The notes below the pieces were generated by a model. It made no database searches. It was not told where the DNA came from and was given only the letters and a program-made list of their open reading frames with translations. Both the position numbers and the translations under genes were made by a program. Of a stretch of 64,000 nucleotides of DNA, positions 1 to 48,231 are shown piece by piece. Positions within the stretch are counted from its first letter, which is position 1; each line of letters starts with the position of its first letter. Source of the stretch: Thermoplasmata archaeon (lineage in GTDB: Archaea; Thermoplasmatota; Thermoplasmata; Methanomassiliicoccales; Methanomethylophilaceae); contig SUTB01000001.1 in the NCBI GenBank assembly GCA_015063125.1, positions 682,001 to 746,000 of the forward strand, given 5' to 3'.

Positions 1-298
1 TGTCCAGGATCCCCTGCTGGAATCCGTTCACATCCGTGCCTGCGGTGACATAGCTGTCCATGCCCAGGCGCTTGACGATGGCGTCGACCGATTTCGAGAA
101 TCCGCTGATTACACCCATTCCTGACGTGATGGGAACGACTGCGACCCTGACCTTGGAGAAATCCACATCGTGATCCACTCCGGCACCCTCCAGCGCCAGC
201 TGCTTCACGGTCTTTCCGCACATCTTCATCAGCCTGGAATCCAGGTCCAGCTTGTCATCGGGTACGCCTTCAATCAGATCGGGTGTTAGCCTTGTCAT
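1..298 (-). CDS. pylD: PylD, pyrrolysine-forming dehydrogenase (partial, C-terminus outside window)
   Basis: The last step of pyrrolysine synthesis oxidises L-lysine-Ne-3R-methyl-D-ornithine, which then cyclises to pyrrolysine. Only about the first 99 residues are present; the gene runs off the left edge. The visible start is MTRLTPDLIEG, followed by a stretch containing ITSGMGVISGFSKSVDAI, which matches the conserved N-terminal region of PylD as I know it. The ATG shares its A with the TGA stop of pylC (TGATG), so translation is coupled. Identity rests on this region plus the pylS-pylB-pylC order, which is the canonical operon in this order of methanogens. Confidence 0.93.
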   Translation of the reverse strand, partial: MTRLTPDLIEGVPDDKLDLDSRLMKMCGKTVKQLALEGAGVDHDVDFSKVRVAVVPITSGMGVISGFSKSVDAIVKRLGMDSYVTAGTDVNGFQQGILD

Positions 299-1458
299 CA
301 GATCATCTCCGGGGTTCCGTCGAGGAACCTCTCAATAGAACATTCGTCAAGGATCCTCTGGATGCAGGCATCGCATTTCTGGTCTACCTCCTGCTCCGTC
401 CTTCCTTTGACGATGAGGGTGGCATGCCACTCCTCCTTACCGTTTTCATAATCGGAAATGGTGTTGTCAGCACCGAACAGTCCCTTCTCGAACCTCGGTT
501 TCACCACATGTCCGAACTCCTTCTCTCCGCTCGACCTCAGGACACCGTCCTTGAAGTACACGTGACGGTAGATTGAGCATCCTTCCTCGGCCTTCCTGTC
601 CTTGGGCTTGCCAAGGGCGGTGGTGGTCAGCTCCTCCAAGAGATTGACTCCTGTAGCCGCCTCGATGGCCGCGGGGGTCTGGCTGGGGATACGGGCATCG
701 ATCTCCAGCACGCGGAGTCCCTTGGGTGTGAGGATGGCTTCCACATCCATGAGTGCATTGAGCTTAATCGCTTCAGCAACATCCTTTCCGATATCCGCGA
801 ACTTCCTGCATTCCTCATCGGACATTATGTTGGGGTTGCAGCGGACCATCTTGCAGTCGTAGTTGGAATCGAGGCAGACCTCGGTGGTGACGTATGATTT
901 TGCGGTCTCACCGTTGCCGATCACCTCGATTGAGACGCTCTTGCCGTGGACGAACTCCTGGATGACCGGTTCGTCTCCCAGGCCCCTGACGATCTGCAGA
1001 CCGTTCTCGAGGTCGTGCTCGTTATGGGCTACCGTGACACCGATGCTTCCGCTCTGGGATGCTGGTTTCACAATAGCAGGATAGCCGCAGTACGGCCAGG
1101 GTTCCGGAAGAGGTACTCCAACCGACGCCATGATGTTGTTCGATTTGTTCTTCGAACTCGAGATGTTGTATGATGCTAGGTCGAACAGAAGAGGAGCATC
1201 CATACGTCCTTTGATCGAGTCCAGCGTTGTCAGGAGATCCATCTCCTCGCATGCGGGAATCACCGCATCGCATCCTTTGAAGACCTCCAACGCAGCTTCC
1301 GCATCCTTGGTGGGGTCTAAGACTATCGGTTCGTCGCACAATGACATTGCCGGGGCGGATGCCTTCCTATCCAGGACGACGGTCTCGTAACCGGCGGCCT
1401 TGGCCAGTAGAACCGCTTCCATGCCCTGAAGGGCCCCGCCGACTATTGCGATCCTCAT
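298..1458 (-). CDS. pylC: PylC, 3R-methyl-D-ornithine:L-lysine ligase
   Basis: This ATP-grasp ligase joins 3R-methyl-D-ornithine to the epsilon amine of lysine, the second step of pyrrolysine synthesis in the cytoplasm. The 386-residue product opens with a pre-ATP-grasp Rossmann segment (MRIAIVGGALQGMEAVLLAK). It continues with an ATP-grasp core (YPAIVKPASQSGSIGVTVA near residue 130, LMDVEAILTPKGLRVLEIDA near residue 240) holding the metal-binding acidic residues. The length is usual for the family. The start codon overlaps the pylB stop (TGATG) and the stop overlaps the pylD start, so the gene is translationally coupled on both sides. Confidence 0.96.
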   Translation of the reverse strand: MRIAIVGGALQGMEAVLLAKAAGYETVVLDRKASAPAMSLCDEPIVLDPTKDAEAALEVFKGCDAVIPACEEMDLLTTLDSIKGRMDAPLLFDLASYNISSSKNKSNNIMASVGVPLPEPWPYCGYPAIVKPASQSGSIGVTVAHNEHDLENGLQIVRGLGDEPVIQEFVHGKSVSIEVIGNGETAKSYVTTEVCLDSNYDCKMVRCNPNIMSDEECRKFADIGKDVAEAIKLNALMDVEAILTPKGLRVLEIDARIPSQTPAAIEAATGVNLLEELTTTALGKPKDRKAEEGCSIYRHVYFKDGVLRSSGEKEFGHVVKPRFEKGLFGADNTISDYENGKEEWHATLIVKGRTEQEVDQKCDACIQRILDECSIERFLDGTPEMI

Positions 1459-2513
1459 CAGGCCACTCTCTTCGGGCGGTGTGCGTTCAGGAATGATTGG
1501 TATTCCGCGGATGATGCGTGGTGGTGGCCCATGTCCTCGAGAAGCTCGAACACGTGCTCGACGGAACGGTTTCCGTTCTCGATGTCCAGCTCGTGCTGCG
1601 CCACACCAGCGAGATGCTTGCTCGGAGGAACTATGGACGTGACCACGTTGGCTCCGGCGTTGATCCTTGTCTTTAGACCTGCGATGCCTTCAACGTCGAG
1701 GCTGCAGGGGATGAGCTTGTCCTGGTTCAGGAGCCTCATGATGGCGATGGCCTTCAGCTCCTCGGTGGAATCGTAGGGCGTGAAATCCTGCATGGGCGTT
1801 CCCACCTGGGGGACGAACGTCATGGCGCGGACCTGACCGCATCCCAGGGAGCTCATCTCTGCGATGGTCTCCGCACGGTCCCTGACGTTCTCTCCGAGTC
1901 CGATCATCATACCGTCCTCGGCCAGCAGTCCTGCCTCCATGGCCCAGATCTTCTGGTTCCTGCGGTCGTCGAAGCTCTGGTTGAGCCTCAGTGATTTGAA
2001 AAGCTGCCTGTTGTAGGTCTCCTGGTAGCATGCGTACCAGTCAGCCCCGGCGTCGCGCACCTTCGCGAACATCTCCTGAGGCAGGGCTCCGGGGGAGGCC
2101 ATGATGTTGATGCCGACCTCGTCGTGCACAGCGGAGATTATCTCAAGGAGGTTCTTGTAACCGTCCTTATACATCTGGGGATCCTCGCCCATGGTGAGAT
2201 CAGAGAGGTTGATACCTGCATCCTTCAGGCTTGCCGACAGCTCCACGATCTCCTCCTTGGTCTTGCGGTATCTGTCGATGCCGTTGTTGGTGGTCCTGTA
2301 ATAGCAGAAAGTGCAGTTGTTCTTGCAGTAGGTTGAGAAGTAGACGAAACCGTATGTGAAGATCTTCTTGCCGAAGTGCTTGTCCCTCACCCTGCGTGCG
2401 GCTGAGAACAGGCAGTCCAGTTCGTCCTTGTCCGATACGGACATCAGCTGGAAGATCTCGCCTACAGATAGCTTTCCTTCCTTCTCTCCCTTTGCGACGA
2501 TGTCCGCTATCAT
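1458..2513 (-). CDS. pylB: PylB, lysine 2,3-mutase-type methylornithine synthase (radical SAM)
   Basis: PylB rearranges L-lysine to 3R-methyl-D-ornithine, the first committed step of pyrrolysine synthesis. The radical SAM cluster motif is visible as YCKNNCTFCYYR near residue 65 (CxxxCxxC), followed by a TIM-barrel sequence of normal length (351 residues). I chose the ATG at 2513 (MIADIVAKGEK). A TTG at 2522 that overlaps the pylS stop would add three residues and cannot be excluded. The stop overlaps the pylC start, so it is the middle of a coupled pylSBCD unit. Confidence 0.95.
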   Translation of the reverse strand: MIADIVAKGEKEGKLSVGEIFQLMSVSDKDELDCLFSAARRVRDKHFGKKIFTYGFVYFSTYCKNNCTFCYYRTTNNGIDRYRKTKEEIVELSASLKDAGINLSDLTMGEDPQMYKDGYKNLLEIISAVHDEVGINIMASPGALPQEMFAKVRDAGADWYACYQETYNRQLFKSLRLNQSFDDRRNQKIWAMEAGLLAEDGMMIGLGENVRDRAETIAEMSSLGCGQVRAMTFVPQVGTPMQDFTPYDSTEELKAIAIMRLLNQDKLIPCSLDVEGIAGLKTRINAGANVVTSIVPPSKHLAGVAQHELDIENGNRSVEHVFELLEDMGHHHASSAEYQSFLNAHRPKRVA

Positions 2514-2518
2514 GAATA

Positions 2519-3340
2519 TCAATCCAATTTGTAACCGTTCAGGTACGTGATGCTCTTACCGGTCTTCCTGGCGTTGCTCCTTCCTGTCTTCATCATGAGG
2601 AGCCTCTCCAGACCGAAACCGATTCCTGCCCAAGGCTCATGGACGTCATGCGCGGGGTCGAGTTTGTGGGGTCCGATGGCCCCGGATGCGACCTCCGTGC
2701 CGTTGATCTCAACGTCTAGTGTCTCTACGTAGACGTCGGATTCCTCGCGGCAGGTGGTGTACTCGAGTCCGACAGCGTCCATGATGTCGCCGATGTACAT
2801 CTTCAGATGCTCCATTGCATCTCCGTCCGGTCCCATCTCCACCAGGTTCAGCATCGTGAACTCCTCGAGGTGGGTGGAGCTCTTGGACTCCTTCCTGAAG
2901 CATGATCCGATCTCGAATATCTTCACGGGGCCTTTTGTGTGGTCCCTGAGCTCCCTCATGACCTTGTAGAGGTTCATGGCGTGCATGGGCCTAAGAGCTC
3001 TCTTGTCATCTATCCAGAAGACCTGCTTGTACAGCGGGTGGTCCTCGGTGATGGTCATCTTTGCCAATGCGGCCTTGGAAACGAAAATGGGGGTGTGCAC
3101 CTCGATGAAACCCCTGGCCTTGAGCTTCTCCCTGATCCTGTTCTCCAGATCGGTAAGGTCGTTGCGGGGGTTGGCGATGATGTCCTTCAGACCCTTGTCG
3201 TTTGCCGACTTCATCTTGGAGAACTGACTGGAGAACTCCTTGTCCCTCGCTGCGGCGTCATCGAACTCCGCGTCGGACCAATCGACGTCTCCATATTCCA
3301 TCAGATGCTGGATCTGAGAATCAGTGAACTTTACACCCAT
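2519..3340 (-). CDS. pylS: PylS, pyrrolysyl-tRNA synthetase, class lacking the N-terminal domain
   Basis: PylS charges tRNA-Pyl(CUA) with pyrrolysine. The 273-residue protein is only the class II catalytic domain. Visible elements are the motif 2 region (GSCFRKESKSSTHLEEFTML, holding the Arg that contacts ATP), the pocket Asn in FTMLNLVEMG, the mobile-loop Tyr in SDVYVETLDV and motif 3 (WAGIGFGLERLL). The separate tRNA-binding PylSn domain of Methanosarcina enzymes is absent and no pylSn gene is seen here, which matches the host-associated Methanomassiliicoccales class. An open frame extends upstream into the tRNA gene, but the ATG at 3340, 17 bases after the tRNA 3' end, gives the family N-terminus (MGVKFTDSQIQ). 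Confidence 0.97.
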   Translation of the reverse strand: MGVKFTDSQIQHLMEYGDVDWSDAEFDDAAARDKEFSSQFSKMKSANDKGLKDIIANPRNDLTDLENRIREKLKARGFIEVHTPIFVSKAALAKMTITEDHPLYKQVFWIDDKRALRPMHAMNLYKVMRELRDHTKGPVKIFEIGSCFRKESKSSTHLEEFTMLNLVEMGPDGDAMEHLKMYIGDIMDAVGLEYTTCREESDVYVETLDVEINGTEVASGAIGPHKLDPAHDVHEPWAGIGFGLERLLMMKTGRSNARKTGKSITYLNGYKLD

Positions 3341-3357
3341 GATATCTACCGTAATGA

Positions 3358-3428
3358 TGGCGAAAGGCCGGGGGGTCGAACCCCGCTTACAGGTTTTAGA
3401 GACCCGTTTGCTCGCCGGAGCGCCCTCC
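3358..3428 (-). tRNA. pylT: tRNA-Pyl (anticodon CUA)
   Basis: This 71-base gene includes an encoded CCA. On the minus strand it folds as a 7-bp acceptor (GGAGGGC with GCCTTTC, including G-U pairs) and a 4-bp D stem GCTC/GAGC with a 4-base loop. Then come a 6-bp anticodon stem ACGGGT/ACCTGT around loop CTCTAAA (anticodon CUA), a 3-base variable region AAG and a 5-bp T stem. There is no linker base between acceptor and D stem. The long anticodon stem and short D loop and variable region are hallmarks of tRNA-Pyl. It lies directly in front of pylS and is probably its first co-transcribed element. Confidence 0.97.
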
Positions 3429-3645: not shown

Positions 3646-5028
3646 TCAGAAGTCGATACCGCAGTTGGAAAGGACGTTCAGGGCACTGTCATAGATCGAG
3701 ACGTACTCCTCGGTAGGCTGGATGTCGTCGGTGTCGTAGCATTCCTGGAATTTCTTCCCCGCCGGAGCCTCAGCATAGATCTTCTCGTAGGTTGAGACTA
3801 TCCTGTCCAGAACGATGTTGACATCCTCGATGGACATGCCGCAAGCGGCCATCGATGCCTCACCCATCATCCTGGATTCCATACCGGTGACCTTGTCCAT
3901 CTGAACACCTTTGGCTGAGGCCACACCGGACAACAGCTCCCTTCCTGATGCCGTGTCGCACATGGCCTGGGCCGCGGTCTCCAGCAGATTCATCTCAGTG
4001 CAAGGTCCGGCCATCGCATAGTACTGGTTCGCCAGCAGTAGATCCGTGTTTGTATCCAACGCCATGGCGGTGTGGGCCGCCACCTGCAGGGACTGCCTGT
4101 TGGTTGTGGTACCCCATCTGATGTGGATCGGCCCTCCGAGATGGATGTCCCCGTTGAGCAGGGCGGAAGTAGCAATGGTAGTGGCGACATCGCAGATTGC
4201 GGTCTCCTCTATTCCTCCGGCATATCCGCCCACGATCGGCATCTGCTCGATCAGGATATTGTCTCCTGAAAGATGCCAACCAGCGACCATGTTCAGAAGG
4301 TTCATGTCGACCTTTATCTCGTTGAGCTGTGAAGCCTCATGGAGATCCGAATGCCTCATTCCAATCTGATCGTGGAGATTTGCAACGATGCGTCCTTGGA
4401 CGGTCAGAGGAGTCTGCGGGCCCTATACTCCCATACCCGGTCTTCCCGCATTGATCAGCGCATCCTTCACATATGATAGCTCCACGACCGTGGCCCTGAT
4501 CTCCCAAGGAGAGTTCTTGACGGAAGGGTGTCCCTTGACAGTCTCCAGTACACCGGACACGATGGTGTCCACAGTGGGTTCCTGAGCGTATGATTCAATC
4601 AGAGTGGTGTAGATGCTCTCAGAAACGGGAGCTCCTGTGGGGCCTCCTTCGATTATGGGCTTCGCCATGCTGTTCCCTCTGCGGGGCGTGCATTCCACCT
4701 GATCCTTCCCGCTGCCGATGTTGAGCTTCTTCGGAGCCATCTTGAGACCTTCGTAGATCTCGTCCTCGGTGATCTTCATGCGGGTTCCGGTATCCCTATT
4801 GTAAATTCCGGTTGAGATGAGCATATCTATCCCGGCGACGAACAGGCGGTCCACCATGTCCTGGTCCTCTGGGAGGATCTTGTCTCCGAAATTGATGTTG
4901 TAGCGTTTCTTCATCAAAGTGGCGGTGTTGGGAACGATGTAGTAATCCCAATCCTTCTCGGAAATCTTATCTCCGGACACGAAGCGGTTGTAGGCTTCGA
5001 AAACATCAACATACCTACGTGCCGTCAT
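3646..5028 (-). CDS. mtmB: Monomethylamine methyltransferase MtmB, solitary copy, with in-frame TAG (pyrrolysine 202)
   Basis: MtmB transfers the methyl group of monomethylamine to the Co(I) corrinoid of MtmC. The frame is open for 201 codons, meets TAG at 4425-4423, and continues in the same frame for 258 more residues to TGA, giving 460 residues with pyrrolysine at 202, the position known in Methanosarcina MtmB. Around the amber the sequence reads NAGRPGMGV-O-GPQTPLTVQG. An upstream ATG at 5037 exists. I prefer 5028 because it aligns with the start of the second copy and places Pyl at 202. This copy has no mtmC partner beside it and is transcribed away from the mtmC-mtmB pair, so it probably shares that MtmC. 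It is clearly diverged from the other copy (for example AGGIEETA here and CGQLEETA there). Confidence 0.95.
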
Positions 5029-5291
5029 CCTATCCAACTCCGCTTGTGAAAGGGGTGTATAAACCCTCGCTACCGATTGTTGAAATCGGATTTCATATTA
5101 TTAATAATGAGCCTAAAATCGATATAAAATTGGTTCGGCTCTGATTTATCATATTAATAGATAGCTATAGGCCAGCATATTATTATTTATTATAAATTAT
5201 CAGAAAGTGAAGAAACTATATGCTAGGAGATCAGACGAGGAGCTTGATTCTTGGAACGCCTCAAAAAATCTGTAGGAAAAAATGTCCACCC

Positions 5292-5664: not shown

Positions 5665-6303
5665 ATGGCAAATGAGGAAATTCTGGCGGATCTTAAGACA
5701 TCCGTCGAGACTTGGAACATCAAACTTGCACAGGAAGCTACCCAGAAGGCAATCGACGCAAAGATGGAAATCGGAACCATCATCGGAGAGGGCCTCGGAA
5801 AGGGAATGGAGACCATCGGAGTCAGGTTCGACAAGGCAGAGATCTACCTACCCCAGGTCGTTGCAGCATCCAAGACAATGGAGGCAGCACTCAACATCCT
5901 CAAGCCTCTCATGGAGAGCGGAGAGGGCAACCTGAAGGGAACCGTCGTCATGGGAACCGTCGAGGGAGACATCCACGAGATCGGAAAGAACGTCTGCTGT
6001 GCAATGCTCAGGGGAGCAGGATACAATGTTATCGACCTTGGACCTGACGCATCCGCAATGGACTTCATGGACGCTGCTGAGGAGAACAACGCATCCGTCT
6101 GCGGTGGATCTGCACTCATGACCACCACCCTTGAATCCCAGAGAGAACTGGTAGAAACCATTAAAGAGATGGAAGCCCCCTATAAAGCCATATTCGGTGG
6201 AGCACCCTGCTCGAAAGAGTGGTGCGACGAAATCGGAGCAGACGGTTACTCTGAGACTGCAAACGAGATCATCGGACTCGTCGACCAGCTCACTGGAAAC
6301 TGA
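5665..6303 (+). CDS. mtmC: Monomethylamine corrinoid protein MtmC
   Basis: MtmC carries the corrinoid that accepts the methyl group from MtmB and gives it to the coenzyme M methyltransferase. The 212-residue product has an all-helical cap (about residues 1-90) and a B12-binding Rossmann domain with the base-off/His-on motif DIHEIGKN at 102-109, where His is the lower cobalt ligand. A strong ribosome site (AAGGAGGA) precedes the ATG. mtmB follows after 34 bases and the pair ends at a hairpin near 7800, so this is the core mtm operon. Confidence 0.97.
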   Translation: MANEEILADLKTSVETWNIKLAQEATQKAIDAKMEIGTIIGEGLGKGMETIGVRFDKAEIYLPQVVAASKTMEAALNILKPLMESGEGNLKGTVVMGTVEGDIHEIGKNVCCAMLRGAGYNVIDLGPDASAMDFMDAAEENNASVCGGSALMTTTLESQRELVETIKEMEAPYKAIFGGAPCSKEWCDEIGADGYSETANEIIGLVDQLTGN

Positions 6304-6337
6304 TTTGGAAAAACAAACCCCAATAATAGGTGATAAA

Positions 6338-7777
6338 ATGGCAGCAACAAGGTTCTTGACCGTTACTGACGTGTACGAGAGATTCCTCAAGGGAAAGAAG
6401 GTCCCTGAGGCAGACTGGGATTACAAGATCATCCCTGAGACAGCGACAGCAATGAAAGAGAAGTACAAGCTCAACTTCGGCGACAAGTTCGTCCCCGAGG
6501 ACAACGAGACAAAGAACAACCTGTTCCAGGCTGGTCTCGAGATGCTCGTCACATGCGGATTCTACTGCCAGGACCTCGGCCGTGTAATGAAGTTCACGGA
6601 AGAGGAGATCTGGGAGGGAATCAAGAGGGCACCCAAAAAGCTGATCCTTGGAGAGGGAAGGGACATCGCAAGGTTCTACCCCAGACACGGAAACGCACCC
6701 ATCAAGCCCGTCATTCAGGGAGGACCTACCGGATCACCCGTCTCTGAGGACGTATTCATTCAGATCATGCAGTCCTACGCCCAGGAGGGAATCGTCGACG
6801 ACCTCGTTAACGGAGTTATGACTACCGTCGAGGGCAAGCCCGCAAAGTCCAAGACCCCCTACGAGGTCCGCGCGACAATGCAGGAGCTCAGGATGACCAA
6901 AGAGGCAAGGACCAGGGCCCAGAGGCCTGGACTCGGTGTCTAGGGACCCGAGACTCCTCTGTCCGAGGCAGCAAGGCTTGTCGCAGACTGCCCCAACGCC
7001 GGACACAGGATCACCGATGCCCACGAGTGCTCTCAGCTCAACGAGCTGAAGATGGATATGACCGGACTGAACATGCTCGCTGGCTGGACAATCTCCGGAG
7101 ACACCATCATGATCGAGCAGATGCCCATCTTCGGTGGATACTGCGGACAGCTCGAGGAGACCGCAATCTGTGATGTCGCTACGACACTCGCATCCTTCGG
7201 ACTCTTCTCCGGTAACTTCCACCTTGACGGACCTATCCACATCAGGTGGGGAACCACCATGGCTAAGGAGACCCTCGCAGTCGCAGGACACGCTTGCGCA
7301 GCAGTCGACAACAACACCGACCTGCTCCTCGCTAACCAGTACTACCCCGTTGCAGGACCCTGCACCGAGATGGGACTGATCGAGACCGCAGCCCAGGCAA
7401 TCTGTGACACCGCTTCCGGAAGAGAGCTCCTCTCCGGATCCGCAGTCGCAAAGGGAGTCGTACAGGACAAGATCACCGGAATGGAAGCCCGTGTAATGGG
7501 AGAGGCAGCCGCACAGACCGCAGGAATGAAGATCCCTGAGGTCAATGACCTGCTCAAGAAGTTCGTCGAGTGGTACGAGCCTCAGTACACCAGCGCCGAC
7601 CTCGGAAAGACCTTCCAGGAGTGTTACGACGTCAAGACCGTCAGGCCCACCAAGGAGTACCTCGAGGTCTACGACGCAGCTCTCGCCCGCATGGCCAGCT
7701 GGGGATTCGAGATCACCCCCTACAACACCGGTGTCATGTACGGCGGTTACGACGACCCCAAGAACTACAGATACTGA
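6338..7777 (+). CDS. mtmB: Monomethylamine methyltransferase MtmB, operon copy, with in-frame TAG (pyrrolysine 202)
   Basis: This is the same enzyme as the minus-strand copy at 3646. Translation from ATG 6338 (MAATRFLTVTDVYERF) gives 201 codons, TAG at 6941-6943, then 277 further residues to TGA, for 479 residues in total. The amber context is RAQRPGLGV-O-GPETPL. A longer upstream frame begins inside mtmC and is rejected in favour of this start, which places Pyl at 202. The C-terminus runs about 20 residues beyond the solitary copy (ending DDPKNYRY). It shares a transcript with mtmC and is followed by a GNRA-loop hairpin. Confidence 0.96.
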
Positions 7778-47523: not shown

Positions 47524-48231
47524 TTACGTCCTATCCCTGCAGATGAACTTGATGGCCTCGTTGGCCAAGGTCATGCCGAAAACCCCGGGGACAGTCGGCA
47601 ACGATCCCAGGACGCTCTTCCCGTGGTCGTCCCTCTCCGACGGCTTCGCCACCGGGGGCTCCACCGAATAGACGGCAGTGATCTTCGATGTATCGCAATC
47701 CCTGAGCGATTTCCTGAGCTATGCCGCGATCGGGCAGACGCTGGTCTTCATGAGCGGTGATACTCTGACCGATTGCGTATCGATATGAAGTGCGGCACCC
47801 ATTGATGAAAATGTGACTATGCCTTTCTCGGAAGCATGCCTCAGAAGCGCGGTCTTGTTGCGAACGGTGTCGATCGCGTCGATCAGGATATCATAATCGC
47901 CTTGCAGTATGCCAGGGACGGTCTCCTCGGTGACCAGTGCATCTATCCCTTCTATCTCAATGTCCGGATTGATGGATCTGGCCCTCTCGCAGGCGGCCTC
48001 GACCTTCGATCTGCCGATCGTATCATGTGTGGCCAGGATCTGACGGTTCAGATTGCTGTCTGAGAACACATCGTGGTCCACGACCCTTATCCGGCCTATT
48101 CCTGCGCGTACTAGTCCTTCGAGGACATACCCTCCGACAGCTCCGCATCCGACTAGGATTACAGATGCATCCTTCAGCTTCTGTATGCCTTCCTCTCCCA
48201 GGATCAGTTCCGTCCTCTGTGACATGCTCAT
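47524..48231 (-). CDS. ThiF/TcdA-family E1-like adenylating protein with in-frame TAG at codon 171 (candidate pyrrolysine protein)
   Basis: The first 170 codons encode a ThiF-type fold: ATP loop VGCGAVGGYVLEGLVRAGIG (residues about 26-45), VVDHDVFSDSNLNRQILA and YDILIDAIDTVRNKTALL, as in tRNA threonylcarbamoyladenosine dehydratase TcdA. TAG lies at 47721-47719. The same frame then continues for 64 residues to TAA and is still clearly the family: LRKSLRDCDTSKITAVYSVE, then GSLPTVPGVFGMTLANEAIK. The amber sits in CPIAA-O-LRKSLR, aligned by eye with the DPLAKRLRERL segment of bacterial TcdA, so no residues are missing. Total 235 residues. TcdA forms cyclic t6A in tRNA; that activity is inferred here. 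It overlaps the TatD-like gene and has AGGAGG as ribosome site. It could instead be a recent nonsense mutation, but the intact tail argues for decoding. Confidence 0.82.

What the first reader, a model, noticed from the sequence alone, without database searches (positions are those of the whole stretch)
47524..48231. ThiF/TcdA-family gene interrupted by a single in-frame TAG: likely pyrrolysine outside methyltransferases
The 170 codons before the TAG and the 64 after it are in one frame and both match the E1-like/TcdA fold. The downstream part keeps the family ending (GSLPTVPGVFGMTLANEA) with no gap, frameshift or decay, and the position falls in a surface helix (CPIAA-O-LRKSLR). In a genome with pylT, pylS and pylBCD this predicts a pyrrolysine in a tRNA-modifying or related adenylating enzyme. 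A purely neutral insertion of Pyl and a functional one would both be new to me for this family.
Basis: partly seen in the sequence, partly recalled or inferred. Interest (0 to 1): 0.82.

Follow-up and report, generated by a model that had tools for sequence, protein, structure and literature searches.

The report
Strain-specific pyrrolysine codon in TcdA-like gene
A methane-making archaeon whose machinery reads the "stop" triplet TAG as the rare amino acid pyrrolysine has, by one recent base change, gained such a triplet inside an otherwise intact TcdA-like enzyme gene; this is very probably a harmless swap, one of more than a dozen like it in this genus, and not a new function.

Summary
The gene is on the minus strand (48231..47524, 235 codons plus TAA), with one in-frame TAG at codon 171 (47721-47719). 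Read through, it gives a complete TcdA-like protein; the predicted structure matches E. coli TcdA end to end.

A same-species genome (97% identical) has TCG (Ser) there, and the 27 other orthologues aligned have varied sense codons. The TAG is therefore one recent C-to-A change at an unconserved position, not a conserved pyrrolysine site.

Pseudogene or Pyl codon? I compared ~0.83 Mb with that strain and a sister species. Between the strains, 9 conserved genes carry a strain-specific in-frame TAG and none a TAA or TGA. Of ~480 conserved genes per genome, I found none that truly ends in TAG. The sister species has a TAG in its only DNA ligase. A Na/Pi-PhoU transporter keeps its TAG in 9 genomes. 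So TAG behaves as a sense codon in this genus, and tcdA most likely makes a full-length protein with a neutral Pyl.

The kind is known: Borrel et al. 2014 predicted 16 non-methyltransferase Pyl proteins in Ca. M. alvus. Pyl was not observed directly.

The parts
47524..48231 (-). TcdA-like (ThiF/E1 superfamily) gene, 235 codons + TAA, with an in-frame TAG
   Evidence: full-length orthologues; AlphaFold model matches E. coli TcdA 4d7a over 234 columns, TM 0.85
47719..47721 (-). in-frame TAG, codon 171; TCG (Ser) in the same-species genome G077
47722..48231 (-). part before the TAG, 170 codons (the truncated product if TAG terminates): Rossmann/ATP-binding part
47524..47718 (-). part after the TAG, 64 codons + TAA: rest of helix 167-175, strand 184-189, helix 213-232; conserved family ending
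3358..3428 (-). pylT, tRNA-Pyl with CUA anticodon
   Evidence: ARAGORN
2519..3340 (-). pylS, pyrrolysyl-tRNA synthetase (PylSc type, 273 aa)
   Evidence: TIGR02367 260 bits, above cut-off
1458..2522 (-). pylB
   Evidence: TIGR03910 443.7 bits, above cut-off
298..1458 (-). pylC
   Evidence: TIGR03909 333.4 bits, above cut-off
1..298 (-). pylD, its first part (5' end); continues beyond the window (own genome C4:681489-682298)
   Evidence: TIGR03911 186.4 bits, above cut-off
3646..5037 (-). methylamine methyltransferase gene with the conserved in-frame TAG at 4425-4423 (RPGMGV-O-GPQTPL): positive control for Pyl decoding
   Evidence: methyltransferase identity from the known MtmB motif, not from a profile search
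6131..7777 (+). second methylamine methyltransferase gene with the same in-frame TAG at 6941-6943: positive control (the listed start may be too early)
   Evidence: same caveat

Best explanation
The gene encodes a TcdA-like adenylating enzyme. In this strain one C-to-A change turned Ser codon 171 (TCG) into TAG. In this genus tRNA-Pyl, charged by PylS with Pyl made by PylBCD, reads TAG as a sense codon at essentially every site. The ribosome therefore inserts pyrrolysine at a variable position of a helix and goes on to the TAA, giving a full-length, probably working enzyme. The change is a near-neutral Ser-to-Pyl substitution. Shown here: the intact gene, the strain-specific single base change, the variable column, the complete Pyl cassette, and the genus-wide treatment of TAG as sense. 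Inferred: that Pyl is actually inserted at this codon, and that the protein works.
For: (1) The same-species genome G077 has TCG at codon 171; 27 further orthologues have S/A/R/K/I/T codons and Bacteroidales relatives have L or M. (2) No visible decay: 26 synonymous and 5 amino-acid differences besides the TAG; the 2 after the TAG are conservative (K183 for R, G216 for A, the latter also seen in Bacteroidales relatives), and the family ending is intact. (3) Complete pylTSBCD. (4) Between the two strains, in genes whose frame is confirmed by the sister species, in-frame stops are 9 TAG, 0 TAA, 0 TGA over ~162,000 codons; all 10 apparent TGA cases lie in wrong or doubtful frames. Adding 4 in the sister species G073 (aconitase, DNA ligase, SfsA, VTC) gives 13:0. 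(5) Of ~480 conserved genes per genome, about 2% stop first at TAG; in own and G077 genomes each genuine one continues in frame into homologous sequence, including the clamp-loader large subunit whose PCNA-box-like ending lies after the TAG. (6) G073 has a TAG at codon 46 of its only DNA ligase; no NAD-type ligase was found. (7) Nine genomes share one TAG in a Na/Pi-PhoU transporter whose part after the TAG stays conserved. (8) The read-through model has pLDDT 88 and matches TcdA end to end.
Against: No protein-level evidence. TAG is the easiest stop to reach by one base change here (60-67% of opportunities), so 9:0 alone is weak (chance roughly 0.01-0.03) and 13:0 moderate (roughly 0.001-0.006). 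The gene has no close match in many relatives of the family, so loss would be tolerable. Only 64 codons follow the TAG and the strains are close, so early decay could be missed. A base-call error in the 8-contig assembly cannot be excluded.
Confidence: 0.86

Rival explanations
1. The TAG terminates: this strain has a fresh loss-of-function allele giving a 170-residue fragment without the C-terminal part of the fold.
For: All relatives have sense codons; many family members have no close orthologue; a single strain-specific nonsense change is how a pseudogene starts.
Against: TAG does not terminate other conserved genes in this genome or its same-species partner; TAA or TGA interruptions of confirmed genes were not found, so the excess is specific to TAG; TAG sits inside single-copy aconitase and the only DNA ligase of close relatives; no visible decay after the TAG.
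Confidence: 0.07
2. The TAG is a sequencing or assembly error and the true codon is TCG.
For: One base differs from the same-species genome; the assembly is in 8 contigs; reads were not available.
Against: Similar strain-specific TAGs occur in the single-contig relatives G077 and G073, and errors should also have produced TAA or TGA in confirmed genes, which were not seen.
Confidence: 0.04
3. Pyl-171 is functional or regulatory: full-length enzyme is made only when Pyl is available, tying tRNA hypermodification to methylamine supply.
For: Decoding requires Pyl; a TcdA-type enzyme would act on tRNA (established knowledge of TcdA).
Against: Not conserved even within the species; variable column; the same kind of TAG occurs in unrelated genes.
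Confidence: 0.02

Closest known systems
Predicted non-methyltransferase Pyl proteins of Ca. Methanomethylophilus alvus (Borrel et al. 2014, PMC4153887)
   Same: Same order; TAG-interrupted genes with homology on both sides, sense codons in relatives, very low TAG-stop usage (1.6%), complete Pyl cassette; read as tolerated amber mutations.
   Different: Their Table 7 lists no TcdA/ThiF protein; the species differs; here the strain-level ancestry (TCG to TAG) and the TAG versus TAA/TGA contrast are shown.
Pyl in tRNA-His guanylyltransferase, 'by neutral evolution' (Heinemann et al. 2009; known here from its title in PMC4153887 and a mention in PMC8211752, the paper itself is not held)
   Same: A Pyl in a tRNA-related enzyme, attributed to neutral evolution.
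   Different: Different enzyme and order (Methanosarcinales).
Archaeal genetic code with all TAG as pyrrolysine (a 2025 report, recalled from memory; not in the searchable library)
   Same: As I recall it, some archaea use TAG only as Pyl, with proteomic support; the pattern here fits.
   Different: I could not check whether this genus or this gene is covered.
E. coli TcdA/CsdL (PDB 4d7a, 4d79, 4yed)
   Same: Best sequence and structure match; TM 0.85 over nearly the whole protein.
   Different: 33% identity, shorter C-terminal part; scores 126.6 bits against the TcdA cut-off of 304.

Membership tests
ThiF/E1-like superfamily (PF00899) | Score over the Pfam gathering cut-off | tested here: met
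   150.9 bits against 28.1
TcdA (ct6A synthase, NF011696) | Score over the curated equivalog cut-off | tested here: not met
   126.6 bits against 304: filed as TcdA-like only
TcdA | TcdA fold along the whole chain | tested here: met
   Foldseek top 15 are all E. coli TcdA, TM about 0.85, 234-242 columns
TcdA | Dehydration of t6A to ct6A on tRNA | not testable with these tools
   Needs biochemistry; the review PMC9654439 tabulates ct6A for bacteria and eukaryotes
Pyl-containing proteins | In-frame TAG with homologous coding sequence on both sides | tested here: met
Pyl-containing proteins | Complete pylT, pylS, pylBCD in the genome | tested here: met
Pyl-containing proteins | Pyl detected at the residue | not testable with these tools
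   Needs mass spectrometry
Functionally conserved Pyl site (as in MtmB/MtbB/MttB) | TAG kept at the same column among orthologues | tested here: not met
   No other orthologue has TAG; the same species has TCG
TAG fully reassigned to Pyl | TAG essentially unused as terminator | tested here: met
   No true TAG terminator found among ~480 conserved genes each in half of the own genome and of G077; the other half and release factor aRF1 were not examined

The most novel reading that the evidence does not exclude
Full-length TcdA-like enzyme in this strain is made only when pyrrolysine is available, so codon 171 acts as a methylamine-dependent switch on a tRNA hypermodification.
Probability: 0.02. 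Interest if true: 0.8.

Novelty: new member of a known kind. Interest (0 to 1): 0.33.

Why it matters
Taken alone it is one neutral Ser-to-Pyl change. Its value is in the set: strain pairs in which TAG, but neither TAA nor TGA, appears inside conserved genes show amber codons being captured as sense codons over short times. Once single-copy genes such as DNA ligase or aconitase carry TAG, the Pyl cassette should be hard to lose even without methylamines, which can be tested by genetics and proteomics.

Tried and rejected
Reading the interval on the plus strand: no gene. First counts of interrupting stops were swamped by antisense and over-extended frames, so TAA and TGA looked common; requiring third-position changes around each stop, checked against the sister species, removed them. 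One possible decayed accessory gene with a TGA (C4:643009) remains unassigned and was not counted. The read-through ORF list was likewise dominated by antisense frames and used only for TAGs in confirmed genes. One script failed part-way, with its stop counts already printed. The DNA alignment put opposite strands together and is meaningless; the pairwise comparison replaces it. The TGA in L032 is that gene's own terminator, not decay. The residue was at first expected to be a conserved Lys from the E. coli motif; the alignment shows a variable column. G077 lacks the TAA used here (CAA instead) and runs about 24 residues on; other orthologues end near this strain's TAA, so the unusual ending is G077's.

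Full report
WHAT IS THERE. The open frame lies on the minus strand, 48231..47524. It starts with ATG, runs 170 codons to TAG (47721-47719), then 64 codons to TAA (47526-47524). Gene order on that strand is an rpe-like gene, a FEN1-like nuclease, a TatD-like gene, this gene (its ATG overlaps the end of the TatD-like gene), then an isoleucyl-tRNA synthetase-like gene (some names by eye). With the TAG read through, the protein matches Pfam ThiF over residues 10-233 with 150.9 bits, against 133.9 for the first part alone. Its best curated family is TcdA, but it scores far under the cut-off (126.6 against 304), and its best solved relatives are E. coli TcdA structures. An AlphaFold model of the read-through protein (pLDDT 88) matches TcdA along nearly the whole chain (TM 0.85). 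I call it TcdA-like; the tRNA reaction is not shown.

WHERE THE TAG CAME FROM. Of 147 genomes of the order, about 50 have a close full or partial orthologue; the only one with a TAG inside is the window's own. The same-species genome G077 (97% identical protein) has TCG at the column; the other orthologues aligned have S, A, R, K, I or T, and Bacteroidales relatives have L or M. The TAG thus arose from TCG by one C-to-A change in this strain or its recent ancestors. The column is unconserved and falls in a helix (167-175); solvent exposure was not computed.

IS THE GENE DECAYING? Against G077 there are 32 differing codons: 26 synonymous, 5 amino-acid changes and the TAG. After the TAG there are 4 synonymous and 2 amino-acid changes. 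Both are mild: Lys183 where G077 has Arg, and Gly216 where G077 and nearly all archaeal orthologues have Ala but most of the Bacteroidales relatives have Gly. The family ending is intact. The power of this test is small because the strains are close.

HOW DOES THE GENUS TREAT TAG? I took 833 kb of the own genome (the contig holding the window), the syntenic 844 kb of G077 and 1.1 Mb of a sister species G073 (synteny checked). Genes were accepted as real when they aligned to the sister species with mostly synonymous, third-position changes. Between own and G077, about 470 such genes (~162,000 codons) hold 9 strain-specific in-frame TAGs: 3 in own (this gene, a glyoxalase-fold protein, an FMN reductase) and 6 in G077 (aconitase, Hel308-like helicase, a second ThiF-family protein, clamp-loader large subunit, a small P-loop GTPase, a coiled-coil protein) (the last three named by eye). 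The ten TGA cases lie in wrong or doubtful frames (mostly first- or second-position changes, usually with a better frame over them), and there were no TAA cases. G073 adds aconitase at another site, DNA ligase, SfsA and a VTC-domain protein. One-step mutation to a stop would give TAG 60-67% of the time here, so 9 of 9 has a chance of about 0.01-0.03 and 13 of 13 about 0.001-0.006: moderate by itself.

TERMINATION. The stronger evidence is termination. TAG is the first stop in about 2% of conserved genes (11 of 461-482). Each genuine case in own and G077 genomes continues in frame: four methyltransferases with their known Pyl site, the strain-specific cases above, a Na/Pi-PhoU transporter and a UvrD/RecB-like helicase with the TAG also in the sister species. 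The helicase has few synonymous changes near its TAG, so it is the least certain of these. Two other own-genome cases (C4:509549, C4:435358) look like shadow frames, as does the 509549 counterpart in G077 (313784). The sister species' DNA ligase with TAG at codon 46 is its only ATP-type ligase, and no NAD-type ligase was found. The transporter's TAG is shared by nine genomes at 77-98% identity while the sequence after it stays conserved. A terminator would not give these patterns.

MECHANISM. The cassette pylT, pylS, pylB, pylC is in the window and pylD adjoins it. A review reports no obligatory mRNA element for Pyl insertion, and proposes only competition of tRNA-Pyl with the release factor (PMC8211752). 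The simplest account is that UAG-171 is decoded as Pyl like the others, giving a full-length enzyme with a tolerated substitution. Insertion at this codon and enzyme activity are inferred.

KNOWN OR NEW. Borrel et al. 2014 (PMC4153887) reported 16 predicted non-methyltransferase Pyl proteins in Ca. M. alvus, 1.6% TAG stops, and argued that in-frame amber mutations become stable in such a context. Their table has no TcdA/ThiF protein. Neutral Pyl in tRNA-His guanylyltransferase is cited there. From memory, a 2025 report describes archaea that use all TAG codons as Pyl; it is not in the searchable library, so I could not check overlap. This is a new member of a known kind.

LIMITS. There are no proteomic data and no reads; only half of the own genome was compared; the chance estimates assume equal mutation rates apart from a transition bias and independence of sites; and manual judgement entered the frame assignment.

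Noticed in passing
own genome C4:800038-801714 (minus; L125:38-1714), outside the window: Na/Pi-cotransporter with PhoU domain carries one in-frame TAG (codon 399) in 9 genomes of the genus (77-98% identity), and none in the 23 more distant homologues listed (41-65%). A clade-conserved in-frame TAG outside methyltransferases, a better candidate for a retained Pyl than the gene in the finding (same site checked only in own, G077 and G073).
   Followed up: partly
own genome C4:578830-581734 (minus), outside the window: A 968-residue UvrD/RecB-like protein (named by eye from its motifs) has an in-frame TAG at codon 418 in own, G077 and G073 genomes.
   Followed up: no
G073 DNA ligase (L198:12542-14305, minus): The only DNA ligase found in this single-contig genome has a TAG at codon 46.
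   Followed up: partly
G077 clamp-loader large subunit (position 254893-256294 of the joined G077 stretches): The TAG lies 15 codons before the end, ahead of a PCNA-binding-like ending QASLFDF, where this strain has GAA.
   Followed up: no
G077 ThiF-family paralogue (own C4:675359-675983) and G079:C36:15326-15712: Other ThiF-family genes in the genus also carry an in-frame TAG, in G077 at a different position of a different paralogue.
   Followed up: no
L005 (G077 tcdA): G077 has CAA where this strain has its TAA stop and runs about 24 residues on; most orthologues end near this strain's TAA.
   Followed up: no
window 47524-48231 and L040-L047: Outside the order, the nearest relatives found are from Bacteroidales (about 40% identity), and the gene is patchy within its own family, which may point to lateral transfer.
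   Followed up: no
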